DNA from: an uncultured Clostridia bacterium | Lineage (GTDB): Bacteria; Bacillota; Clostridia; Christensenellales; UBA1242 | Direction: 5' to 3' | Assembly: GCA_947624415.1 (NCBI GenBank) | Contig: CANQKH010000013.1 | Span: forward strand, 1-45,753 | DNA: 45,753 nucleotides | Part shown: in pieces, positions 3,155 to 30,917 of the stretch | How the letters are laid out: every line of letters begins with the position of its first letter | Numbering within the stretch: the first letter of the stretch is position 1 | Position numbers and translations under genes: made by a program | Notes under the pieces: model-generated | Databases searched by the model: none | Seen by the model: only the letters and a program-made list of their open reading frames with translations | Told to the model about the DNA's origin: nothing

Positions 3155-3645
3155 GAGAAAAGGCACTTGCACTTTTGGCGACCAACAATAGTTTATCGGA
3201 GGTTTCTAGATTGCTTCATATTAGTGTTTCAACGTTGCAGACTTGGAAAAACAAACACGAGAACGATAAGGACTTCGTAAATCTTCGCAATAAAAAGAAA
3301 GAAGAATTTGTAAATAGTGCGTGGAAACTAATTGAGGATTCGGTGAAAGTTGCACAAGAGCGAGTGTCGAGAGAGCTTGCAGTTGAAGAGAGCGTTGACA
3401 AGATTGCAGAGATTATAAAAAAGAACGCAAACGATATTGACAAAGAAACTGGCGTGGGTTGGTTTGAGCTGCTTGACCTTATAGAGAAGCTGAAAACGTG
3501 TAAAAATTTCAAACTGAGCGAACTATCAACACTTATTGGAACGATGTATGATAAGCAGGCACTTGCAAACAATGAGTCAACAGTGAGGGTTGATGTGAAG
3601 TTAGAGGACTTGTTGAAAAGGGTTGAGGGGAAAAGTGATTATTAA
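3124..3645 (+). CDS. terS: phage terminase small subunit (putative)
   Basis: 173 residues. ATG 3124 is chosen for GGGAGGTG at 3113-3120. The N-terminus is a helix-turn-helix (SEALREKALALLATNNSLSE, then VSRLLHISVSTLQTWKNKH), the DNA-recognition part of small terminases, which bind the packaging site. The rest is helical and charged, suited to ring oligomerisation. It lies directly before the large terminase, with its last codons overlapping that gene's start. Sequence alone does not separate a terminase HTH from a transposase HTH; the position decides it. Confidence 0.75.
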   Translation: MRGQKHSEALREKALALLATNNSLSEVSRLLHISVSTLQTWKNKHENDKDFVNLRNKKKEEFVNSAWKLIEDSVKVAQERVSRELAVEESVDKIAEIIKKNANDIDKETGVGWFELLDLIEKLKTCKNFKLSELSTLIGTMYDKQALANNESTVRVDVKLEDLLKRVEGKSDY

Positions 3646-5356: not shown

Positions 5357-5589
5357 TGAGAAAGAAAACTTATAACGAAATAATGGAAAGGCTTGACAAG
5401 TTGGAAAAAGGCTTGACAAGCGTTTCTGCTACCGTTGGATACAATAAGGAAAGTGTAGAAGAGGCAGCAAGAAAGATTGAAGAGCTCTCTGAAACAATCG
5501 CAAACCTGACCGACGACGGCGAGGCACTTACACCACGGCAAATTTTAAGACAATATTTTTATGGCAAGCAGGAGGATGATGAGAAATGA
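5350..5589 (+). CDS. small coiled-coil phage protein between terminase and portal
   Basis: 77-79 residues. Possible starts are GTG 5350 (10 bases after GGAG), GTG 5353 and ATG 5356, the last overlapping the terL stop as TGATG. The body is an amphipathic helix (YNEIMERLDKLEKGLTSVSA and onward), then LTPRQILRQYFYGKQED. It overlaps the portal gene by 4 bases. It may be a packaging or portal-associated factor by location only; no family recognised. Confidence 0.6.
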   Translation: MVMRKKTYNEIMERLDKLEKGLTSVSATVGYNKESVEEAARKIEELSETIANLTDDGEALTPRQILRQYFYGKQEDDEK

Positions 5590-8424: not shown

Positions 8425-9378
8425 ATGGCAACAAACAATACAACTGAAACCGGCGGAATTAGTGCCGAAATCAAAACATTTTATGATAGGACACTCCTTG
8501 AAAGGATGCTCCCAAATCTTCCTTTCTTGAAATATGGACAAAAAAGACCTATCAAGAAAAATAACGGGAAAACAATCGAGTTTAGGAAATTTAACTCGTT
8601 AGAGCCTGCGACTACTCCATTGACTGAGGGCGAGCCACCAGCAGGCAAAGAACTTAGCGTAACAGCAATAACTGCTACTGTAAATCAGTATGGCGACTTT
8701 GTGCAAGTTACTGACGTTCTTGAAACAACATCTTATGACCCAATTATTACAGAAACAGTTGAATTAGAGGGCGAGCAGGCAGGCGAAACCCTCAACATCG
8801 TTACAAGAAATGAACTTCTCAACACAACTTCTGTTTACAACGTAGGTGGTGGCGTTGATGAAAATGCTATCACGGCAGACAACATCTTAACAGCAGACGA
8901 TGTTTTGAAAATCCAAACAATCTTCCGCAGAAACAACATCAAAACTTTCAGGGATGGATACTACCTTATGTTCCTTGCTCCTGAACAAGCAGCGGACATT
9001 ATGAGAGACCCACTGTGGAGAGATGTTTCCAAGTATGCAAACGATGCAAAAAACATTGAAGATGGCGAAATTGGACGAATTTACAAATTTAAATTCATTG
9101 ATACAAGCCTTGTAGAGCCAAAAGACAACACAAGTGAAGTTCCTATATATAGTGGACTTGCTATGGGGCAAAACGCTTATGGTATTGTTGATATTGAAAA
9201 TGGTAGCAAACCAAAAACTATAATAAAAATCGGCAGAGAAGATGATGGCGACAAGAGCGATCCATTGAATCAAATCAGCACAATCGGGTGGAAAGCACTG
9301 ATGACCGCTGTAAGACTAAATGAACTTGGACTTATGCGAGTAAATTCTGCCGCAACAGAAATCGCAGGGGAGGAATAA
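8425..9378 (+). CDS. major capsid protein, N4-gp56 family
   Basis: 317 residues. Sequence pattern of the N4-gp56/HK97-fold capsid family: N-terminal helix with FYDRTLLERMLPNLPFLKYG, then GKTIEFRKF, LTEGEPPAGKELSVTAITAT, VNQYGDFVQVTDVLETTSYD, and late in the chain QNAYGIVDIENGSKPKTIIK and LNQISTIGWKALMTAVRLNE. It builds the icosahedral shell. Length and order (portal, scaffold, capsid) are typical. AAAGGAGAATAATT precedes the ATG. This gene is the strongest marker of the phage type. Confidence 0.92.
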   Translation: MATNNTTETGGISAEIKTFYDRTLLERMLPNLPFLKYGQKRPIKKNNGKTIEFRKFNSLEPATTPLTEGEPPAGKELSVTAITATVNQYGDFVQVTDVLETTSYDPIITETVELEGEQAGETLNIVTRNELLNTTSVYNVGGGVDENAITADNILTADDVLKIQTIFRRNNIKTFRDGYYLMFLAPEQAADIMRDPLWRDVSKYANDAKNIEDGEIGRIYKFKFIDTSLVEPKDNTSEVPIYSGLAMGQNAYGIVDIENGSKPKTIIKIGREDDGDKSDPLNQISTIGWKALMTAVRLNELGLMRVNSAATEIAGEE

Positions 9379-16286: not shown

Positions 16287-17519
16287 ATGGCAACACAACA
16301 AGATGTTTTTATTGCAATTCGCAATATCAAGGAAGCCATCGAAGAAAAGGGTGGCACAGTAGAGCAGGCGAACATAAATGTCTCCCTGCCAGAACTTGCA
16401 GCAGGGGTTAGAACAATCCCTACGGGCGGCGGTGGTGCAAGTTATATAATCAGAGCCGCAGAACTTCCAAACATTACACTTCAACTCTCCAAAGACGGGG
16501 CAGTGAAGGAAAGCCAGTCAACAGGCGAGCAGGGCGGGGTTGTCGAATTCACGGTCACAGAGCCAGGCGAATATACAATCAAAGCGCTTAGTGGAGATGC
16601 AGAACAATGGCAAAACACAATCACGGTAGAAGACAAGGGCGTTTATAACTGCAAGTCAGGCAAGGCGCTCAACGATTACTCGTGGGACGACATCAAGAAA
16701 GCGCAGGCGGGCGATTATTTAAGGGCTATGTTCAATGCGGGAGATTTCAAATACCTAACATCGTTTATGGGACAATCATCACAGACATACACAAAATGCA
16801 CCCTTTGCGACTTCGATAAAAAACAAAACGCAGACGGAAGCGGCAAAAAACTGGCTGTGTTTATGATAGCGCAGACGAGTTCAACATACAAGCATAGAGA
16901 TGCATCGGGAACAAATGGAATTTCGTGGGAAGGCTCGCTTATAAGACAAAATGCCTTAAAATCGGGCGAAGATTACTACCTATACGACAATAATGTGTCA
17001 AGTTCTACATCGGGGACTTATTACAAATACGACCCGCAAACAAAAGCGTTTGTGTCTGTGGAACTTCCTGGCGCATTTGACTCCAGCACAAAATACTACA
17101 CGAAAAACACTCTCGATGCAGACGGGGCATTTATTGCTGGCTTACCAGACGAGATCAAAGACCTTGTCGAACAGGTGGAAAACGAGACATGGGGCGGTGC
17201 AATCGGCACAGATACAAACCAGGCAGACAACACCATCATCAAAACGAAGGACTGGCTCTGGTTGCCTAGCGACAGCGAAATATTCGGGGACGACCCAGAT
17301 AGCCGCTTTGTTAATTACAGCAAGGTGGGACTGGAAGGCAAAACCTTTGAAGCATTTAAGAGTTATAAGGAAAACAACTTCAGGTTCTCCAACTACCGGT
17401 GGTTGCGTTCTCCTTACCTACGCACCGCTCATTATTTCTGCGGTTGGGACAACTTCGGGTATGTCGGCAACAACGCCGCCAACACCACTAACAGGGTGGC
17501 TCTCTGCTTTTGTATTTAA
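16287..17519 (+). CDS. receptor-binding-like fibre protein with C-terminal C-type-lectin/DUF6273-like fold; probable DGR target
   Basis: 410 residues. N-terminal docking motif, an Ig-like beta domain (about residues 50-115, SYIIRAAELPNITLQLSKDG onward), then a DUF6273-like region. The C-terminus reads RWLRSPY (from W372), a variable stretch rich in N, T, A, Y and G, and closes with NRVALCFCI. Domains ending this way (C-type-lectin fold) are the usual targets of diversity-generating retroelements. In the 24 codons from 17421 to 17492, 22 end in C or T, as expected from AAY template codons. The gene is visibly richer in G+C than its neighbours. No reverse transcriptase is nearby. GGAGGAGG precedes the ATG. 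Confidence 0.75.
   Translation: MATQQDVFIAIRNIKEAIEEKGGTVEQANINVSLPELAAGVRTIPTGGGGASYIIRAAELPNITLQLSKDGAVKESQSTGEQGGVVEFTVTEPGEYTIKALSGDAEQWQNTITVEDKGVYNCKSGKALNDYSWDDIKKAQAGDYLRAMFNAGDFKYLTSFMGQSSQTYTKCTLCDFDKKQNADGSGKKLAVFMIAQTSSTYKHRDASGTNGISWEGSLIRQNALKSGEDYYLYDNNVSSSTSGTYYKYDPQTKAFVSVELPGAFDSSTKYYTKNTLDADGAFIAGLPDEIKDLVEQVENETWGGAIGTDTNQADNTIIKTKDWLWLPSDSEIFGDDPDSRFVNYSKVGLEGKTFEAFKSYKENNFRFSNYRWLRSPYLRTAHYFCGWDNFGYVGNNAANTTNRVALCFCI
17372..17519 (+). other. candidate DGR variable region (VR)
   Basis: The 3' end of the fibre gene, covering WLRSPY to the stop. Codons 17421-17492 are almost all NNC/NNT and alternate with intact AAC codons, the pattern left by adenine-directed mutagenesis of an AAY-rich template. 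The invariant end (AGGGTGGCTCTCTGC onward, about 17493-17518) would be the initiation-of-mutagenic-homing part. Boundaries are approximate because no template repeat is in the window to align. Confidence 0.6.
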
Positions 17520-17531
17520 TCTAACGCAATC

Positions 17532-17551
17532 AGCACGCTGGAAAGCGTGCT
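17532..17551. repeat. perfect 8-bp hairpin with GGAA loop, DGR target-site type
   Basis: AGCACGCT, loop GGAA, AGCGTGCT: a perfect stem 12 bases after the fibre stop. DGR targets carry a hairpin/cruciform of about 7-10 bp with a four-base GRNA loop just downstream of the variable region, needed for efficient homing; this fits in stem length, loop sequence and position. There is no T-run, so it is not a typical terminator. Confidence 0.65.
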
Positions 17552-17574
17552 AACAGGAGGACGAAGCGGAATGC

Positions 17575-17730
17575 GTGATATTGAGAAAAGAAACCGTCAA
17601 GAATGGCGTGTATGAAACAGGCGTTATGAAAATGTCAAAAACATAATTTGAAAAACTTGTGAAAGAGGAGGGCAAAAATAACTCCTTATTCAGTTTAGCG
17701 ATAGGTATAGAATCTAATATAAAAATATAA
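17575..17730 (+). pseudogene. decayed small ORF with in-frame stop
   Basis: In one frame the DNA reads V-I-L-RKETVKNGVYETGVMKMSKT, TAA (17644-17646), then FEKLVKEEGKNNSLFSLAIG and IESNIKI before a second stop at 17728. A single GAA to TAA change would explain the break (SKT-E-FEKLVKE reads naturally). A good GGAGG (17556-17560) points to ATG 17571, which is in another frame and stops after 14 codons, so a frameshift may also have occurred. The family is unknown. Confidence 0.45.
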
Positions 17731-17762
17731 TAAGATTCTTTGGTAATAGGAGGGGAAATGTC

Positions 17763-18011
17763 ATGTATATAACTAAATCGCAACCTGTAATTGTGCAGGA
17801 TGGAAAAATTAAAGAAGGTATTGAAATTAGAAAGGGCGTGCTTTGGATTGGCAAAAATATCAAATTTGAGAAAGGAAGATGGAACAGGCTGGGCGACGAT
17901 AGAAAGTGGTATTTTTTAGGCTATGGTGCAAATCCTGCCATAGAAACAACAAAAGATGGTGTTGTAAATCAAGAATTGTTTGACACAGTTTTTGAGGAGG
18001 TGGAAGCGTGA
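17763..18011 (+). CDS. hypothetical phage protein (82 aa)
   Basis: 82 residues, beta-rich in the first half (MYITKSQPVIVQDGKIKEGI onward) with a Trp-rich centre (LWIGKN, KGRWNRLGDDRKWYFLGYG). ATG 17763 has AGGAGGGG at 17748-17755; an ATG at 17758 is out of frame and closes at once. Its stop overlaps the GTG start of the next gene. No family recognised; the location suggests a structural or lysis-related accessory. Confidence 0.6.
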   Translation: MYITKSQPVIVQDGKIKEGIEIRKGVLWIGKNIKFEKGRWNRLGDDRKWYFLGYGANPAIETTKDGVVNQELFDTVFEEVEA

Positions 18012-20990: not shown

Positions 20991-23900
20991 ATGGCACAAG
21001 GGATTTATGGTAAGGCGTATGTTGCAAACAAGTTAACCGCTGCGAAACAAAGACAAGAAACCGAAATTCGCGAGCAAGAACGCATAAGAAGAGATCAAGA
21101 GCGCCTGAATAAAGAAAGAGAAAGCGCAGGCTTCTTTGAAAGGCTTGGTTATTCGATTTTGGATGTTTTTACCGAAATAGGTGGCGGACTCGCAAAAGGA
21201 CTTGAAGGTCTTGTTGATGCTGCTGTTACCATTACAGGTGAAATGGGCGGTTTTTTTGGTGCAGACAAACAATGGGCAGAGGATATTGTCAAGTTTGATG
21301 CTACACAAGAGTGGTGGTATAGTTGGGAAGACCCTCTTACAAATAAGTCTTATATGAACGAAGCTCCAATTGCAAAAGACATTGTAAGAGGTGTTGGGCA
21401 GCAGTTACCTGCGATCGCGTTAAACTTTATTCCAGGAGGACAAGCGTTGTCAATGGGCTACCTGCTTACAAGTGCCGCTGGAACAGGTGCCGAGGAATCA
21501 CTAAATGAGGGGGCGAATTTAGATCAAGCATTCTTTTATGGTTCTATCCAGGGACTTATAGAATATGGGACAGAAAAAGTAACCGCTGGCTTGGGGAAAG
21601 GTATATATTCGGTCGGCAAAGGCACAGCGAAGTCAGTGGGCAAGAGCGTGGCTAAAACAGCAGGAAAGGTTGCGGCAGAAGAATTTGTTAGCGAAGGCAT
21701 TGAAGAAGGATTATCCGCTTTACTCAACCCATTGTCAAAAACGATATATAAGGGCAGCGAAGCGTTGGAGATGTATAAAGACGCAACGTTCTATCTTGAT
21801 GCAGCACAGCAGGCTCTTGTCGGTGCTGTTGTCGGCGGAATAATTGGTGGAAGCAGTGCGAGCATTCAACGATACAGAGCAGGTGGGAATAAAAACTTTT
21901 TAATTGAGCAAAGTGTAAAAGAAATTCAAACCCTGGACACAAAGGCGGACAACCTTTTTAATGCTGACCGGTTAACTCAAAATAATTTGAATGATATAAA
22001 TAGTCAGCGAACGGCGGAGCTTGATAATATTAGTAAACAATTGCAAAGTATGAGTCAAGACGAAAGAAAAACTGCAATAAAGAAATATGGCTTGTCTAGT
22101 ATGTTTGATGAAAATGGTAGTATTGTTACAAATAACGCGGAAGTAAGTCAAAACGTGGCTACCGGTGAACAAACTGCCGAGCAACAACAAAACACCGCTA
22201 GAAAGCCGCTTATAAGTGATAATATCGAGGCTTACAGTCCAAGTTTAAGAAACACTGAACTCGTTTTTGCACCTACAAGCAATCAACTGACACAAGCAGC
22301 ACGCGAGGCAAAGAGATTTATTGGCTCGCTCAATCCAAATGCGAAGATTGTTATAACTGAAAGTATGTTTGAAAATACAAATGCTTTCTATGACACAAAT
22401 TCTAAAATTTTCTATTTTACAAACAATGCGACAACACAAGAGATAGTGGGACACGAATTTACGCACTCTTTAGAGGGAACACAAGCGTATAAAGCGTTGG
22501 CTGACTATATTTTATCAAGCACTGAAAATCTTGATGAAAGATTAGCAAAGAAGATTGAACAATATAAAGACGTAAACACCGAAATCAAACAGGGCGAAAG
22601 CGGTGAAAACGTTGCGTTGTATGAGGCTCAAACTGAAATTGTTGCGGAAGAAATGGGAAGAGTTTTAAGCGACCAAGCATCCGTTGAAAGAATTATCAAT
22701 CAAAATAGAAGTGTTGCTTATAAAATTTGGCAGTGGATTAAAGATGCAGTTGCAAAGGTCACGAAGCGCGGCAAGACCGGTGAAATGTATAATTATTTAA
22801 GGCGCGTTGAAAATCTTTTTGCAAGAGCAATCAAAAACAGCATCGGTGGCATAAGTTTAAGTCAAGTTGCTGCAATCGAAGAATTTGAAAGGCAAGCGAG
22901 AGAGGCTGAAAACTCGCAACAAAATGTCGCACTTGACAAACCTTTGGAGGCTCGCTATAATAGATATCAACATCAAGACGTTAGCACCATCACAAGAAAT
23001 TCGTATGAACATCACGCTTGGGCAACAAATGAAATTACCGGCGTGCTGACAGGCAAAGAAATTGGCGCGCTCAATACTGCGGTTGGGGAATTGCAAAAAG
23101 GTGGCAATTTTAGAAAGACCGGAAGCGGCGACTATATCTTCGAGGTGGGTGACTATCAAGCAGGCGAGAGAACAACACTTGTTATTAGCGATGGCGAGTT
23201 TGCTGGACAATCAATTGAAGCGGTTATCAAAATCTATGCAGACGATGCACAAACAACAAAAACATTAAGGGAGTTTGTAAATGAAAGATTATCAACCATC
23301 AAAACCAATAATTACGAGCAATTGGAAGCAGCGTTTAAGTCTTATGCAGGAGTTGACGAAAATGCAGGCATCCGAGTCTTTACACGCGAAAATCGAGCAA
23401 GTTTTAGCGAGTTCTCAAAACAAAGAAGAAACAGCAGGCTTACTGCTAAAACAAATTCAAAACAAGACGGAAGAAGAAGCACTGAAAGCGATAGCGACAA
23501 TGTAGGAAACAAGCGTTATTCTCTAAAAGATAGTGTTGAACAAGACGTTTTGCAAAAATATGGCGAAACAAAGAATTGGAAAATAACCGGATATATTTTG
23601 CAAGATGGCACACAAGTTGACCTATCCGGCAAAAATGAGGGCGCTCCGGTACATTATAGAACAGTTGACCATAGAGATGTTTTCACGGTTTATGAAGATG
23701 GTGATACCTATGGCAGCGAGGCGATGATTGAATTTATGAGCAGAGGGAATATTAGGGTTATTCCTGAATATCCCGGCATAAACATACAAGTCGAGCCTAC
23801 CGATGCGCAATACACTCAAATCGAAAACCTTATTGATGATTTAGGGTGGAAAGAAAAAGGCTTTGTTGTCGATTTTGATAATGCGCGCGGCGATACTGTT

Positions 23901-26900
23901 GGAACTCTAAACTATGAAAACAATATTTCTGCACGAAAAATAATTGCAGATATCAAGTATTATTTCAAAGAGGGCAAACTGCCTCATCAAAGCGATTTAT
24001 CTCAATTTAGATACTCGCTGAAAGATAGCGAAAATCGTTATCTATCCAAAGAGCAAATCGAGTTCTTTAAGGATAGCAAAGTAAGGGATGAAAATGGAAA
24101 CTTGCTTGTTGTTTATCACGGAACAAAAAACGCAAATTTCTATGAGTTTATTTATAATTCAGACAATCAAACAGGCACAGATTTTGGCGAAGCCTACTAT
24201 TTTACAACAAATCAACAAAATGCAAAAGGATATTCGCACAATATATCAAACGACCCTAGAATTGACGAATATCAAAGCAAAAGACGAGGTTTAATTAAAC
24301 AGTATTTAAGCGAACAGACAAGCGATGGAAGAGAGAACATTTATAAACAAATGCAATCTCTAAGAATAGACGGAAAAACAATCGACGAGTTAATAAACGA
24401 TGTAGATTATGACACCGGCGGCGAAGTAAAAGAGTGCTACTTAAACATCGAAAATCCTTTAATCAAAAACGCAAATGGAGATTATTATTATAACGTTTAT
24501 GATAAATATTTTGCAGAAGCAAAAAGAAATGGAAACGACGGTATAATTGTTTATGATGTAAACGACAGTTCAAAAAGCAACGTCGGGCTGTCAGATGTTT
24601 ATATCGCGTTTAAGCCAAATCAAATTAAAGCGGTGACAAACACAAATCCGTCCACAAGCAACGATATCCGCTATTCTTTGAAAGATGGCGAGGGCGACTA
24701 TAATTACTCGAAAGGGCAAATTGCAAAATATGTGGCAGAGCATTCAAAAGTTAAAGCTTATTCAAGGACAGATGCTGAACAAATTATAAATACTATTGTG
24801 TCAAATCAACTTGATTTTGGCGAAAAGTATGGTGAAATTTCAGGAAAAACAAAAAATCAAGTTGTTGACTTGTTATGGCACGGATTAAATACTAAGGATG
24901 AGGGATATCGTGCAGGTGTTGCCTTAGATGTTGCTGATTACATCATTAACAATGCCGTCATGGAAGACATATTTGCAAATGAAGTGAACGCGTCTGAGAT
25001 GTATATTGTAAATTCATTGAGGAATTATCTGCACAATGTTGATCTAAATGGTATAAAAAGTGAAATAAAATATCATTATGATAAAGACAACAGCCCTTAT
25101 TTATTATGGGGCAAGCGTAAGGGAACAGTGGCAAGCTCTCCAGATGTAATAGCACAAGAACTCAGGGAAATTGGAATTAGTTTTAACTCAAACAATCCAG
25201 CGGATATTTTCATCGAAATGGATGAGATGTATAGGGATGCAGTAAAATGTTTAAAGAAGATTGCAAAAGCAAGATTAAGTGATGCAATAGGTGCGGATGA
25301 TTTGAAAGTCTTGCGACAATCTATTGCACGAGAGGTGTTAACAGGTTATGATGAAACTGGACACAAAACTCGCTTTGCTGAAACTATTGAAAAATACACA
25401 AATAAGATTTCTGAGTTAAAGAAAGCTGTTAGAGATATTAAGGCTTATAACTTGGCGAAAAATAACGCAATCTCTACAATTGAAAGATTAAGAGATGAGT
25501 TTATCAAGAATAAACCTGCCGGCTGGAACATTCCGCAACAAGTTGTAAATTTTGTGAAAGAAATTGCGCGGGTTGAAACTTGGCGCAACAATATATCAAA
25601 AACTGCAAGACAATACCTAAAAGAAATGCAACTGCAAATTGACAATGTTTTAGATGAAACGCAACAACAAATTTATCCTTTTAGAGAGACTCTTAAAGAT
25701 TTAGCGAGTGGCGACGGTGAACTTACAACCGACGAACTTAGAACGCTTGATGTTGTTTTAAGGCAGTTTGCTTGGCAATTGCACAATTATGACAAAGTTG
25801 TCTTTGAGGGTAAGGCACAAAGCAATACGGAACTTGCAATGCAGGGCGTGAACGAAAGCAGACAAGCACAGCAAATTTTAAGGGATGGAAGCAACTTTTT
25901 GATAAAATTCAAAAATAGAGTTTACACTAACCCTTATGATCGTATGGCTCAAATGGGACTTTATCGCAAGGACTCTATCACGATGCGACTTTATGCAGAG
26001 ATGTTGGAGGGCGATAGGAAACGTGCAAACTTTGTAAAGGAAGCAAACGATTTGTTTGCAGACTTTAATAAGGCACACAAGAATTACCTTAACGAACTGC
26101 AATCACAAATAACAATAGGTGATGGCAATAACAAACTTACGCTCACAAAGAGGCAAGCTTTAAGTTTGTATGCGACATCTTTCAGAGAGCAGGGCAGAAG
26201 CCACTTGTTTAACATAAATGACAATGAGGGCGTTGTTAGGTTGCTTGACAATAAATTTTCAACTCGCGGCAATATGGCGGAGGCGTTTAGAAATGGTCAA
26301 GATGCTCGCATAACAAGAAATATGATAAATGATATAAGACAACAACTCACGGCGACCGATAATGAGTATATGGAGCTTATCAAAAAATTCTTCAATGAAA
26401 ATTCGAAAAATGCGAAAATGGAGACTGATCAACAACTCTATGGAATCACCAATATCGAGGCTGGTTATTATTTCCCTATCAAAGTGTCAAACGATAAAAT
26501 TTACACGGAAGCAGGACGAAACAACAATAATGTAAATCAATATGTGCTTGAAATGGGTATGAACAAATCCATTAAGCCAAATGCACAAAACAAAATCGTT
26601 ATTGATGGAATTGATAACGTGCTTTCAAATCATATCCAAAATATGTCGCTTTACTATGGTTTTGCTATACCTTTGACCGCTTACAACAGGATTATGAACA
26701 AACAAGTGCTTTCAAGTGCTGGGCAAGACACAACAAGCAATATGCGTGCAGAAATCCAAAAGATTGACGTGGATTTTGAACGATATATGAACAAGTTGTG
26801 GCAAGACGTGCAGGGTATCACAAGAAGCGACAAAGGCTTTATAAGCAGTTTGTTGTCGAAAATTAGATGGGCGGGCGCAAACTCTGCGCTGGGCGCAAAT

Positions 26901-28691
26901 CCAAAAGTGCTTGTTACACAAACGTTATCTTTGGCTGCCGGTGTTGCAGAATTTAATCCAAAATATATCGCAAAAGGTATGACTCACTTCTTTGGCGAAG
27001 CGCAAAAGGTTGAACTTGCAAAATATTCGTCTTTAATGTGGGAACGTATGCAAATCGGCAATAGTATTGATATTGCAGATATCAGGCAAGTTGGCAAAGA
27101 AATTGGCAACAAACTTGGCAAAACCGCAGCAAAAATCACACAAGCACTTAACACTTTTACAACAAAACCTATCTCTTGGATGGATAGCAACGTTATTCAA
27201 TCGTTGTGGTATGCAGCACAATATGAAGTTGCTGACACAAGAGGAAAGGGCTTCGAATTTGGCACGGAAGCAAACAAAATTGAGGCTGGCAAAAGACTTG
27301 ATGAGGTTGTGTTCCGCACGCAGCAAACAAGCGATGCTCTTGGCAGAAGTGAGTGGATGCGTAGCCAAAATGAGATTGTCAAGTTTGCTAGGATGTTCAC
27401 GGGCGATGCAGTGCAGTTGACCGGCAGACTTATTTCTTCCGTTGACAAATATGCGATGGCAAGAAAGATGATAAAGAGCGGCGACACTGAACTCGTGCAG
27501 CAAGGTCAAGCGATGCTGAAAGAGGCAAAGATTGGCGTTGCAAAATCCGGTTCTGCGTTCTTACTAAATCAAGCGCTGTTGCTTGCAGTTGCTATGGCGT
27601 TCAAGTGGATTAAAGGCAAAAACGATGATGAAGAGTGGAGCGATATTGTGCAAAACGAAGCAATTGCAAACCTTGTTGGATTACTGCCCTTTGGTGGCGA
27701 TATCTATGACAAGTTGCTTGGATATGAGCCTACAAATATGGCGTATACTGCATTAAGCAATACTGTGGATATTGTGCAAGACTTCTATGAGGGCGCAGTT
27801 GCACTTATAAGAGGCGATTATGTTGACCCTATAAAGAGAAACGCAGCAATTAGAAAGTCCGCTTTAAGCATCAGCAGATTGACCGGCGTGCCACTTCAAA
27901 ACCTCGAAAGTTATATCAAAGGGATTGTTGGAAAAATATCACCGACAACAAAAGAGCAATATGATGCTTTGTTCAAAACGAAAACAAACACAAATTATCT
28001 TAACAAGATTAGACAAGCGACCGAAAATGGCGATGAGGAACTTGCTGACACAATCATAAATATTATGTTTGATAGTAAGACTGGAAAAATTCGAGATGAC
28101 AAGGTGTTTGCAGTTACAAGAGATTTAATTGAAAAAGGTTATGACGTTCTTCCAAAGAGCATCAACAAAACGATTTCTTATGACGGAACACAATACACGC
28201 TCACGAACAGGCAATATCAGCAATTCAAAAAGATTTACTCACAAGCGACCGATGCAGTGAAGTCAATGGTGAACAACGTAAGTTTTAGAAGACTTGATGA
28301 TGAAGCAAAGGCGAAAGCAATGACATTTGTTTATGACTATTACTACGATTTGGCACTTGAAGATATGCTTGGCGTTGACCTGCAAGAGAAAAACCTCTTA
28401 TTTGCAGAGGCAATTCCTATTGAGATGCTTGCTATGGCAGTTGCACAAGCAAGACTTTATGAGGCGGACAAAGACAAGAAAGGCAACTCGATTATGGGCA
28501 GCAAAAAGGCTAAAATTCAAGTTTTTGTGCAATCTCTGCGATTGACTGCAACACAAAAGTATATGATTATGGGTTATCTCGGCTACACAAACAAACTTGG
28601 CAACAGCCTTGTCAAAAGTTATATTCAGCGACTAAAACTCACAAAAGAGCAAAAGACACAACTCTATGCGTGGAGCGGATATGCAGCATAA
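20991..28691 (+). CDS. giant polyvalent protein, probably carried in the virion and injected
   Basis: 2566 residues. Order seen: charged start; hydrophobic Gly/Ala-rich region (about 50-290) that could insert into membranes; zincin-type metallopeptidase motif HEFTH at 488-492 with downstream ALYEAQTEIVAEE as possible third ligand; an unassigned domain (about 670-790); then three RYSLKD linkers at 842, 1007 and 1227. Between the second and third is an ADP-ribosyltransferase-like domain (LVVYHGTKN, H1043-G-T, and FGEAYYFTT). After 1233 come long helical domains to the end, with a hydrophobic stretch near 2180. Multi-domain chains of this type are polyvalent proteins that enter the host with the DNA to protect it and reprogram the cell. 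Last gene of the late operon. Confidence 0.75.
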   Translation: MAQGIYGKAYVANKLTAAKQRQETEIREQERIRRDQERLNKERESAGFFERLGYSILDVFTEIGGGLAKGLEGLVDAAVTITGEMGGFFGADKQWAEDIVKFDATQEWWYSWEDPLTNKSYMNEAPIAKDIVRGVGQQLPAIALNFIPGGQALSMGYLLTSAAGTGAEESLNEGANLDQAFFYGSIQGLIEYGTEKVTAGLGKGIYSVGKGTAKSVGKSVAKTAGKVAAEEFVSEGIEEGLSALLNPLSKTIYKGSEALEMYKDATFYLDAAQQALVGAVVGGIIGGSSASIQRYRAGGNKNFLIEQSVKEIQTLDTKADNLFNADRLTQNNLNDINSQRTAELDNISKQLQSMSQDERKTAIKKYGLSSMFDENGSIVTNNAEVSQNVATGEQTAEQQQNTARKPLISDNIEAYSPSLRNTELVFAPTSNQLTQAAREAKRFIGSLNPNAKIVITESMFENTNAFYDTNSKIFYFTNNATTQEIVGHEFTHSLEGTQAYKALADYILSSTENLDERLAKKIEQYKDVNTEIKQGESGENVALYEAQTEIVAEEMGRVLSDQASVERIINQNRSVAYKIWQWIKDAVAKVTKRGKTGEMYNYLRRVENLFARAIKNSIGGISLSQVAAIEEFERQAREAENSQQNVALDKPLEARYNRYQHQDVSTITRNSYEHHAWATNEITGVLTGKEIGALNTAVGELQKGGNFRKTGSGDYIFEVGDYQAGERTTLVISDGEFAGQSIEAVIKIYADDAQTTKTLREFVNERLSTIKTNNYEQLEAAFKSYAGVDENAGIRVFTRENRASFSEFSKQRRNSRLTAKTNSKQDGRRSTESDSDNVGNKRYSLKDSVEQDVLQKYGETKNWKITGYILQDGTQVDLSGKNEGAPVHYRTVDHRDVFTVYEDGDTYGSEAMIEFMSRGNIRVIPEYPGINIQVEPTDAQYTQIENLIDDLGWKEKGFVVDFDNARGDTVGTLNYENNISARKIIADIKYYFKEGKLPHQSDLSQFRYSLKDSENRYLSKEQIEFFKDSKVRDENGNLLVVYHGTKNANFYEFIYNSDNQTGTDFGEAYYFTTNQQNAKGYSHNISNDPRIDEYQSKRRGLIKQYLSEQTSDGRENIYKQMQSLRIDGKTIDELINDVDYDTGGEVKECYLNIENPLIKNANGDYYYNVYDKYFAEAKRNGNDGIIVYDVNDSSKSNVGLSDVYIAFKPNQIKAVTNTNPSTSNDIRYSLKDGEGDYNYSKGQIAKYVAEHSKVKAYSRTDAEQIINTIVSNQLDFGEKYGEISGKTKNQVVDLLWHGLNTKDEGYRAGVALDVADYIINNAVMEDIFANEVNASEMYIVNSLRNYLHNVDLNGIKSEIKYHYDKDNSPYLLWGKRKGTVASSPDVIAQELREIGISFNSNNPADIFIEMDEMYRDAVKCLKKIAKARLSDAIGADDLKVLRQSIAREVLTGYDETGHKTRFAETIEKYTNKISELKKAVRDIKAYNLAKNNAISTIERLRDEFIKNKPAGWNIPQQVVNFVKEIARVETWRNNISKTARQYLKEMQLQIDNVLDETQQQIYPFRETLKDLASGDGELTTDELRTLDVVLRQFAWQLHNYDKVVFEGKAQSNTELAMQGVNESRQAQQILRDGSNFLIKFKNRVYTNPYDRMAQMGLYRKDSITMRLYAEMLEGDRKRANFVKEANDLFADFNKAHKNYLNELQSQITIGDGNNKLTLTKRQALSLYATSFREQGRSHLFNINDNEGVVRLLDNKFSTRGNMAEAFRNGQDARITRNMINDIRQQLTATDNEYMELIKKFFNENSKNAKMETDQQLYGITNIEAGYYFPIKVSNDKIYTEAGRNNNNVNQYVLEMGMNKSIKPNAQNKIVIDGIDNVLSNHIQNMSLYYGFAIPLTAYNRIMNKQVLSSAGQDTTSNMRAEIQKIDVDFERYMNKLWQDVQGITRSDKGFISSLLSKIRWAGANSALGANPKVLVTQTLSLAAGVAEFNPKYIAKGMTHFFGEAQKVELAKYSSLMWERMQIGNSIDIADIRQVGKEIGNKLGKTAAKITQALNTFTTKPISWMDSNVIQSLWYAAQYEVADTRGKGFEFGTEANKIEAGKRLDEVVFRTQQTSDALGRSEWMRSQNEIVKFARMFTGDAVQLTGRLISSVDKYAMARKMIKSGDTELVQQGQAMLKEAKIGVAKSGSAFLLNQALLLAVAMAFKWIKGKNDDEEWSDIVQNEAIANLVGLLPFGGDIYDKLLGYEPTNMAYTALSNTVDIVQDFYEGAVALIRGDYVDPIKRNAAIRKSALSISRLTGVPLQNLESYIKGIVGKISPTTKEQYDALFKTKTNTNYLNKIRQATENGDEELADTIINIMFDSKTGKIRDDKVFAVTRDLIEKGYDVLPKSINKTISYDGTQYTLTNRQYQQFKKIYSQATDAVKSMVNNVSFRRLDDEAKAKAMTFVYDYYYDLALEDMLGVDLQEKNLLFAEAIPIEMLAMAVAQARLYEADKDKKGNSIMGSKKAKIQVFVQSLRLTATQKYMIMGYLGYTNKLGNSLVKSYIQRLKLTKEQKTQLYAWSGYAA

Positions 28692-29614: not shown

Positions 29615-29704
29615 TGGCGCAAAGGGCAGGATTCGAACCTGTGGAGGCTTTAACACCTCACACGCTTTCCAAGCGTGCGCCTTAAACCGCTCGGCCACCT
29701 TTGC
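29615..29704 (-). tRNA. tRNA-Ser(GGA), probable prophage attachment site
   Basis: Read on the minus strand: acceptor GCAAAGG/CCTTTGC, discriminator G, encoded CCA; D-arm GGCCGAGCGGTTTAAGGC; anticodon stem CACGC/GCGTG with loop TTGGAAA, anticodon GGA (serine, TCC/TCT); a long variable arm typical of serine tRNAs; T-arm CAGGTTCGAATCCTG. All elements are intact. The 3' end faces the prophage, as expected for integration into a tRNA gene with the 3' part restored by phage DNA. Confidence 0.97.
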
Positions 29705-30071: not shown

Positions 30072-30917
30072 ATGGTAAATATTTGCACTGACAGTTGCAA
30101 TGATTTAACAAGCGAATTAATAGAAGAAAATAATATTAAAGTTATTCCGTTGGTTGTAACGCTAGGCGAGCAAGAATATTATGACAATGTAAATATACAC
30201 CCTGAAGATATTTTTAATTTTGTAAATAAAAACAATATTTTGCCAAAAACCGCGGCGAGGAGTATTGAAGATTATAAAGAGTTTTTCAATTCATTACCAA
30301 AAGAAAATGAAATCATTTATATCGGGATATCAAGTGAACTATCTTCATCAATTAACAATGCAATGTTGGCAAGTAAAGAAGTAGATGAAGGTCGTATTTT
30401 TATTGTGGATAGCCGTTCATTATCAACTGGTATAGGCTTGCTAGTATTGTATGCGGCAAGACTTGCAAAAGAGGGAAAAAACGGAAAAGAAATTTATGAG
30501 ATGTTATTAAAACAAACCCAATTTAATCAAGCATCATTTATAGTTGATAGATTAGATTATCTTTATAAAGGTGGAAGATGTTCTGGAATAGCAAGATTTG
30601 GGGCAAATCTTTTAAAATTAAAACCTTGTCTTGAGTTAGTGAATGGTGAAATTATTAACACAAGTAAATATATGGGAAATTTTAAAAAGATAGTTTATAA
30701 ATATATTGATGATATGTTGGCTAAATATCCAAACGTAAAAAAAGAGAACTGCTTTATAACACACACGTGTAAAGATGAAGCATTTATAATTGAAGTGGTT
30801 GAATACGTCAGAAATAAGAACATTTTTGAAAAAGTGTATTCATCAAGAGCGGGTTCAACAATTTCATGCCATTGTGGTGAAAATACTCTTGGCATTTTGT
30901 ATTTATTGGAGGAATAG
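30072..30917 (+). CDS. DegV family fatty-acid-binding protein
   Basis: 281 residues. DegV proteins bind a fatty acid between two alpha/beta lobes; FakB-type members hand it to the FakA kinase for phospholipid synthesis. Seen: VNICTDSCNDLTSELIEENN at the N-terminus (the T-D-S-x-x-D-L motif), the strand IKVIPLVV, YIGISSELSSSINNAMLA, VDSRSLSTGIGLLVLYAARL (typical S-x-x-x-S-x-G-x-G), LYKGGRCSG, and a C-terminal H-x-G-x-x-x-L-G motif (CGENTLGILYL). Length is normal. Overlaps the next gene by one base. A FakA-like fragment is encoded at 42997. Confidence 0.92.
   Translation: MVNICTDSCNDLTSELIEENNIKVIPLVVTLGEQEYYDNVNIHPEDIFNFVNKNNILPKTAARSIEDYKEFFNSLPKENEIIYIGISSELSSSINNAMLASKEVDEGRIFIVDSRSLSTGIGLLVLYAARLAKEGKNGKEIYEMLLKQTQFNQASFIVDRLDYLYKGGRCSGIARFGANLLKLKPCLELVNGEIINTSKYMGNFKKIVYKYIDDMLAKYPNVKKENCFITHTCKDEAFIIEVVEYVRNKNIFEKVYSSRAGSTISCHCGENTLGILYLLEE

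What the first reader, a model, noticed from the sequence alone, without database searches (positions are those of the whole stretch)
16287..17519. Prophage fibre gene with the marks of a DGR variable region but no reverse transcriptase in view
The fibre protein ends in WLRSPY, a variable Asn/Thr/Ala/Tyr-rich stretch and NRVALCFCI, the layout of C-type-lectin DGR targets. From 17421 to 17492, 22 of 24 codons end in C or T, as expected if they derive from AAC/AAT codons altered at adenines. No reverse transcriptase, Avd or template repeat is in the window, so the cassette is either off the left edge, acts from elsewhere in the genome, or is lost. This would let a lysogenic gut-type phage vary its receptor specificity.
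Basis: partly seen in the sequence, partly recalled or inferred. Interest (0 to 1): 0.85.

Follow-up and report, generated by a model that had tools for sequence, protein, structure and literature searches.

The report
Phage fibre stranded without its mutator
A bacterial virus sleeping in this genome carries the landing site of a self-mutating system in its fibre gene, but the enzyme and template that would do the mutating are missing from the place where its relatives keep them, so the gene is probably frozen.

Summary
The variable region is real. Fibre gene 16287-17519 ends in a DUF6273 domain; 22 of 24 codons at 17421-17492 are NNY. The template repeat (TR) of a syntenic Clostridia phage (G236 = L011, fibre 55% identical) finds it by BLASTN at 17390-17511 (E 1.7e-8). 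All 15 AAY codons of that TR are NNY here; 11 are changed. The 18-nt 3' anchor is identical, and a DGR-type hairpin (8-bp stem, GGAA loop) follows the stop.

Of eight full-length fibres compared, window included, seven carry Avd-TR-RT just downstream. In six of those seven a homologue of window 17763-18011 follows; in the seventh the contig ends. In the window that gene comes right after the hairpin and a broken small ORF: the cassette is missing from its usual place. No RT was found in the assembled genome (1.446 Mb, 90% complete), and no TR by BLAST.

Best reading: a DGR target orphaned by loss of its mutator, now frozen. The prophage's early region was not found in the assembly, so a cassette there is not excluded; relatives G236 and G010 have a second target away from the cassette. 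Present variability is not supported. New member of a known kind, modest interest.

The parts
16287..17519 (+). fibre-type protein, 410 aa, C-terminal DUF6273 domain (aa 245-409): DGR target gene
   Evidence: Pfam PF19789 E 1.6e-9; 55% identical to the L011 target protein
17390..17511 (+). variable region (VR)
   Evidence: BLASTN hit of the G236/L011 TR, E 1.7e-8, 70% identity, the only significant place in the window; codon test
17406..17418 (+). 5' constant anchor of the VR, 13 nt identical to G236
17495..17512 (+). 3' anchor, IMH-like, 18 nt identical to the G236 VR
17532..17551 (+). DGR-type hairpin: 8-bp stem, loop GGAA (fits GRNA), 12 nt after the stop codon
   Evidence: criteria from PMC3240598 passages
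17575..17697 (+). small ORF homologous to the one between hairpin and Avd in G236; interrupted by an in-frame stop
   Evidence: tblastn E 7e-8, 44% over 41 aa; stop seen
17698..17762 (.). short non-coding stretch at the place where relatives carry Avd-TR-RT; cassette absent
17763..18011 (+). 82-aa gene whose homologues follow the RT in six relatives (right flank of the missing cassette)
   Evidence: 31-33% identical to the L044, L029 and L045 genes; tblastn E 3.8e-6 in L044
14537..16284 (+). two genes upstream of the fibre, syntenic with L011
29611..29633 (.). right attachment site: 23 bases over the 3' end of tRNA-Ser (29615-29704, -), repeated at G000:C23:10943-10965 beside an integrase gene
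   Evidence: integrase PF00589 E 1.9e-14

Best explanation
The fibre gene is the target gene of a phage diversity-generating retroelement (DGR) that has lost its mutator. In relatives an accessory protein (Avd), a template repeat and a reverse transcriptase lie directly behind this gene; by the known DGR mechanism they copy the template, with random bases at adenines, into the last 120 bases of the fibre, and the 3' anchor and the hairpin after the stop mark the landing site. Here variable region, anchors and hairpin remain, the next small ORF is broken, and Avd, template and RT are absent before the gene that follows the RT in relatives. The fibre frame is intact; it presumably still binds a receptor, in one fixed version. 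Shown: homology, anchors, hairpin, missing block, no RT in the assembly. Inferred: that the block was once here and was deleted, that nothing acts in trans, and that the fibre binds a receptor.
For: L011/G236: syntenic genes, then target, hairpin, small ORF, Avd (phrog_3206, E 4e-5), TR, RT (phrog_1423, E 1.1e-80). Six TR/VR pairs in relatives: 70 of 71 mismatches in the first 104 nt are at TR adenines. G236 TR finds the window VR, E 1.7e-8; 15 of 15 AAY codons are NNY here and 11 are changed, against 6 of 19 other codons (p 0.018). GRNA hairpin, with at most one mismatch or wobble, behind the cassette-linked VR of 7 of 7 close fibre relatives (G236, G219, G010, G128; L087, L088, L091). Seven of eight full-length fibres compared, window included, have the cassette; in six of those seven a homologue of window 17763-18011 follows the RT, and the seventh contig (G236) ends inside the RT. 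No RT in the own genome with three queries (at E <= 0.001, at E <= 1, at E <= 1e-10); no template by BLAST or by a template-rule scan of 218,976 own bases, controls exact.
Against: The assembly is 90% complete in 42 contigs and the early region of this prophage was not found, so an RT there would be missed; two contigs, 5,767 bases, read as N. No close relative of the window phage was found, so neither the deletion nor the freezing is seen directly. In six viral loci (L097-L102) the 17763 homologue lies before Avd, so gene order is not fixed. The window VR also differs from the G236 TR at 19 of 71 non-A bases, as may be expected at 59% DNA identity, so the adenine rule cannot be tested on its own template. 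Among wider viral relatives the strict hairpin is rare, 3 of 63.
Confidence: 0.72

Rival explanations
1. The cassette is not lost but remote: it sits in the unassembled early region of the same prophage, and the fibre is a remote target diversified in trans.
For: The early region between C23 (integrase and S24-type repressor) and window position 1 was not found. Relatives G236 and G010 have a second target away from the cassette that fits the one template. The window VR, anchors and hairpin look undecayed.
Against: In all seven full-length fibre relatives with a cassette it lies directly behind the fibre; I saw none with a cassette in the early region, but of the 17 RT-bearing genomes of the genus only G010 and G109 were looked at. 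The small ORF at the old site is broken, as may follow a deletion.
Confidence: 0.15
2. The fibre 3' end with its hairpin came in by recombination from a DGR phage, and this phage never had the cassette.
For: Identical amino acids share the same codon more often in the VR than elsewhere between window and G236 (17 of 21 against 73 of 192, p 1.8e-4), a sign of closer ancestry of this segment; among 21 pairs of seven fibres only this one stands out strongly.
Against: Synteny with G236 continues on both sides of the VR: upstream genes at 40-76% identity and the downstream small ORF; the gene that flanks the cassette in other relatives follows.
Confidence: 0.07
3. Assembly artefact: the cassette is present in the cell or in part of the population and was dropped or bridged in the assembly.
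For: Near-repeats such as VR and TR can disturb assembly; the genome is a 42-contig draft at 90% completeness.
Against: A VR-TR collapse would remove the hairpin and the small ORF, which are present; similarity to G236 goes on for about 185 bases beyond the VR. A cassette assembled on another contig should have matched one of three RT queries.
Confidence: 0.05
4. Not a DGR target: an ordinary DUF6273 domain with a chance run of NNY codons.
For: A DUF6273 domain with WLRS occurs in a non-phage-like protein of the same genome; another ORF of the window reaches 21 of 24 NNY.
Against: Match to a template of an intact DGR, identical anchor, hairpin, and intact DGRs on syntenic relatives.
Confidence: 0.01

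Closest known systems
Clostridia prophage DGR in L011/G236 (uncultured Clostridia MAG BRZ_AD bin10, CALWTG010000003.1)
   Same: Same gene order over the structural genes up to the fibre, 55% identical fibre, same 18-nt 3' anchor, near-identical hairpin stem, homologous small ORF
   Different: Has Avd, TR and RT behind the fibre and a second target further off; the window lacks the cassette
DUF6273-type DGR targets of gut Firmicutes phages (Faecalibacterium prophages Lelie, CP11, Roos, Pioen in PMC11792537; phages nd4 and nd12 in PMC10743442; passages seen)
   Same: Variable region at the C-terminus of DUF6273 (PMC11792537; target2 of nd4 and nd12); PMC10743442 likens the domain to a C-type lectin fold
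   Different: Those passages describe targets of DGRs present in the same phage; here no RT is present in the assembly
Bordetella phage BPP-1 DGR (PMC3240598, passages seen; gene roles partly recalled)
   Same: [quoted passage not shown]
   Different: No RT, Avd or TR here; DUF6273 target, not Mtd
Two-target DGR of Quimbyvirus (PMC8008677, passages seen)
   Same: Relatives G236 and G010 have one fibre target and one target beside a DNA methylase gene
   Different: The window itself shows one target only, without a cassette

Membership tests
DGR (complete system) | reverse transcriptase of the DGR group | tested here: not met
   PF00078 and phrog_1423 give 0 matches in own genome; G236 RT finds 17 of 112 genomes of the genus but not this one. 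Limit: draft assembly, two contigs read as N
DGR (complete system) | template repeat differing from the VR only at adenines | tested here: not met
   BLASTN over the own genome finds, besides itself, four hits of 16-27 bases at E 0.3 or worse; rule scan of 218,976 own bases: best 21 violations of 111, controls 0; BLAST control in relatives finds their TRs at E 6e-32 and 7e-41
DGR (complete system) | Avd or other accessory gene | tested here: not met
   tblastn of four Avd proteins against the window and 23 own stretches (part of the genome only): best E 0.053
DGR target gene (variable protein) | 3' variable region homologous to a TR, NNY codons at template AAY | tested here: met
   (template of a relative, not its own)
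DGR target gene (variable protein) | adenine-specific difference from its own template | tested here: inconclusive
   no own template; against the G236 TR, codon positions 1-2: A 17 of 33 changed, non-A 8 of 37, p 0.009
DGR target gene (variable protein) | 3' anchor (IMH-like) and downstream hairpin (7-10 bp GC-rich stem, GRNA loop, 4-34 bp) | tested here: met
   criteria. Strict form seen in only 3 of 63 wider relatives
DGR target gene (variable protein) | C-type lectin fold displaying the variable residues | tested here: inconclusive
   [not shown]
DGR target gene (variable protein) | hypervariability among close relatives | tested here: inconclusive
   shown for three closely related phages (16, 20 and 22 VR differences, 15, 20 and 20 at template A); no close relative of the window phage was found

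The most novel reading that the evidence does not exclude
The phage gave up its own mutator but keeps the recipient site (anchors and hairpin intact) and has its fibre rewritten in trans by cassettes of other phages passing through or resident in the same host: a target-only phage that borrows diversity. The unusually close match of its variable region and hairpin to those of G236, against a fibre gene only 59% identical, would be a trace of such foreign rewriting.
Probability: 0.07. Interest if true: 0.75.

Novelty: new member of a known kind. Interest (0 to 1): 0.36.

Why it matters
It shows how a DGR target looks once its mutator is gone, and that such an orphan can be recognised without an RT, by codon pattern, anchor and hairpin. 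Surveys that start from the RT miss them: PMC8144416 states that its approach would not detect targets that are not next to the RT (passage). Orphans give a way to ask how often phages trade variability for a fixed receptor, and whether target-only phages use cassettes of others.

Tried and rejected
Rejected: an ordinary DUF6273 domain; the hairpin as a terminator only (possible as a second role, but it does not explain the template match). The hairpin is not a general mark: the strict form was found in 3 of 63 VRs of wider viral relatives against 6 of 2,896 random windows, and in 5 of 63 with one mismatch against 21 of 2,909 (with its own random draw gave 3 of 63 against 5 of 2,915). The 63 leave out L086 (same contig as L091) and L090 (same figures as L089). 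It is constant only in the close fibre clade, and the second targets of G236 and G010 have a 6-bp imperfect stem and a non-GRNA loop.

The excess of identical codons in the VR between window and G236 looked like a general DNA-level constraint; a control over 21 pairs of seven fibres showed it only for this pair (p 1.8e-4) and weakly for window against L087 (p 0.021), not among relatives with cassettes.

Led nowhere: fibre alone in viral contigs (0 relatives) and in phage records (no match); a draw of 396 genomes of the order (only the own genome at E <= 1e-20); PDB sequence search (weak antibody-like hits to the Ig-like part). The structure model came late, is weak in the variable domain, and no C-type lectin protein stood among the 50 rows listed of 1,000 chains compared; that excludes nothing. 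The first run of the pair finder was flooded by N runs in L044 and cut; L044 was then read directly. Early proteins of G236 were not found in the own genome, but the tool warns that an empty answer shows nothing without a positive control; a third one found only relatives at 27-31% identity, on contigs C15 and C6. Literature searches for orphan or lost-cassette targets (20 of 272, 25 of 30, 6 of 6 and 0 papers listed) showed no such case that I could recognise from titles, starts of abstracts and passages; the library is open-access only.

Full report
What was checked. The window is the whole of contig C13 of a draft genome of 1,445,820 bases in 42 contigs, 90.41% complete. Phage genes run from the left edge: a terminase-like gene at 3623 (named by eye, no Pfam match), a head-tail connector at 5586 (PF12236, below its cut-off) and a capsid at 8425 (PF25209). 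Host genes begin at 30072. A tRNA-Ser lies at 29615-29704. Twenty-three bases over its 3' end recur at G000:C23:10943-10965, beside an integrase (PF00589) and an S24-type repressor. So the prophage most likely spans from C23 to this tRNA, and its early region, between the end of C23 and window position 1, was not found.

The gene 16287-17519 encodes 410 aa with DUF6273 at aa 245-409. 22 of 24 codons at 17421-17492 are NNY, against a base rate of 0.486. Variable regions of relatives hold 21-23 of 24, and three WLRS-motif domains in fetched stretches of the same genome, one of them DUF6273 by Pfam, hold 13-17. It is the only such site in the window and fits the pattern reported for phage DGRs (7-10 bp GC-rich stem, loop GRNA, 4-34 bp from the VR; PMC3240598, passages).

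An intact relative explains it. L011, a contig of an uncultured Clostridia MAG, encodes the same structural genes up to the fibre (fibre 55% identical; terminase-like, connector and capsid 73-76%). Behind the fibre come a hairpin with almost the same stem, a small ORF, an Avd (phrog_3206, E 4e-5), a TR and an RT (phrog_1423, E 1.1e-80; PF00078, E 1.5e-23). The same record is G236 in the genome search: same coordinates, 100% matches. Its TR and VR differ in 104 nt at 15 adenines and at no other base; carried on to 118 nt, past the 3' anchor, the count is 17 at A and 1 other. Over six TR/VR pairs from G236 (two), G219, G010 (two) and G128, 70 of 71 mismatches in the first 104 nt are at template A. 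Three closely related phages (G010, G128 and the viral contig L086) differ from each other in the VR at 16, 20 and 22 places, of which 15, 20 and 20 are at template A, while their RT genes are 97-99.6% identical. So DGRs of this lineage are or recently were active.

The window variable region belongs to this lineage. The G236 TR finds 17390-17511 by BLASTN at E 1.7e-8, its only significant hit in the window. All 15 AAY codons of that TR are NNY in the window and 11 are changed at positions 1-2; of the other 19 codons 6 are changed (Fisher p 0.018). By base at positions 1-2: A 17 of 33 changed, other bases 8 of 37 (p 0.009). Over all positions 19 of 71 non-A bases also differ, as may be expected between genes of 59% DNA identity, so the adenine rule cannot be tested without the window's own template. 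The 3' anchor is identical over 18 nt and the 5' anchor over 13 nt.

The cassette is missing from its place. In the window the hairpin is followed by the same small ORF as in G236 (tblastn E 7e-8 over 17575-17697), here with an in-frame stop, then by 17763-18011. Homologues of that gene follow the RT in G219, G010, G128 and the viral contigs L086/L091, L087 and L088. Of eight full-length fibres compared (window, G236, G219, G010, G128, L086, L087, L088) seven have Avd-TR-RT directly behind the fibre and the window has not; the G236 contig ends inside its RT, so its right flank is unseen. In a wider set, 65 of 81 viral loci with a related RT show a VR/TR pair by my finder (which itself demands few non-A mismatches); 11 of the other 16 are cut within 1.4 kb upstream of the RT. 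In six loci (L097-L102) the 17763 homologue lies between VR and Avd, so the order is not rigid.

No mutator was found elsewhere. PF00078 and phrog_1423 give no match in the own genome, and the G236 RT finds 17 of 112 genomes of the genus but not this one. BLASTN with 17340-17575 finds, besides itself, four hits of 16-27 bases at E 0.3 or worse; a local BLASTN of the same kind finds the TR of G236 and G128 at 7e-41 and 6e-32. A rule scan of 218,976 own bases (window, contigs C23 to C42, parts of C15, C18 and C19) gives at best 21 violations in 111 positions, with 0 for the true templates of two relatives. Two of these contigs (C35, C37; 5,767 bases) read as N. The rest of the genome was searched by BLAST and profile only.

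How it most likely works. By the DGR mechanism known from BPP-1 (partly recalled, partly in the abstract and passages of PMC3240598) RT and Avd copy the template RNA with errors at A, and the cDNA replaces the VR at the 3' anchor, helped by the hairpin. Here the receiving site is present and the copying machinery is not. The simplest reading is deletion of Avd-TR-RT, leaving a fibre frozen in one version. Shown: receiving site, missing block, no RT in the assembly. Inferred: deletion rather than relocation, and absence of action in trans. The remote rival is kept at 0.15 because the early region is unassembled and because G236 and G010 each have a second target away from the cassette that fits the one template; in G010 it lies on another contig (C100), so that it belongs to the same phage is likely, not shown.

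The protein. The model of the fibre shows a confident Ig-like domain at residues about 51-125, which fills the list of structural matches, and a weak C-terminal part. Whether the variable residues sit on a C-type lectin fold is therefore open here.

A detail for the bold reading. Identical residues share the codon in 17 of 21 cases in the VR against 73 of 192 elsewhere between window and G236 (p 1.8e-4). In a control over 21 pairs of seven fibres this is the only strong case. It may mean a closer common ancestor of this segment, by recombination or by homing from a foreign template; it does not show either.

Comparison. DUF6273 targets of DGRs are known from Faecalibacterium prophages (PMC11792537) and phages nd4 and nd12 (PMC10743442, which likens the domain to C-type lectins) (passages). 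Targets away from the RT are known (PMC8144416, passage), and so is a phage with one structural and one defence-linked target (PMC8008677, passages). The window is therefore a new member of a known kind of target gene. It fails the membership test for a complete DGR (RT, TR, Avd not found). I found no described orphan in four searches of the open library.

Noticed in passing
L043 1215-1964 (-), L030 4811-5593 (+), L047 8025-8747 (-): DUF6273 proteins of 240-260 aa in three relatives, among early-type genes and near DNA methylase genes, without a cassette next to them. In G236 and G010 the variable region matches the one template with 7 and 9 mismatches in 104 nt, all at A: a second, apparently non-structural DGR target.
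   Followed up: partly
L029, L045, L086: Closely related phages in two host genera and a viral contig: RT 97-99.6% identical, fibre before the VR 88-93%, VR 79-85% with nearly all differences at template A. A direct view of DGR activity across hosts.
   Followed up: yes
window 20991-28691: A 2566-aa ORF near the right end of the prophage with an ADP-ribosyltransferase domain of polyvalent proteins (PF18760, E 3e-11).
   Followed up: no
L097-L102: The homologue of the gene after the RT lies here between VR and Avd, so this small gene travels with the DGR module in more than one position; its role is unknown.
   Followed up: no
window 17575-17697; L011 8579-8722; L087 7146-7379: Small ORF that sits between hairpin and Avd in G236 and behind the hairpin, broken, in the window (E 7e-8); by eye a similar one follows the 17763 homologue in L087.
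   Followed up: partly
G000:C15 and G000:C19: Copies (88-89%) of the stretch next to the attachment site, with phage-like genes nearby: probably further prophages in the same host.
   Followed up: no
[not shown]
   Followed up: no
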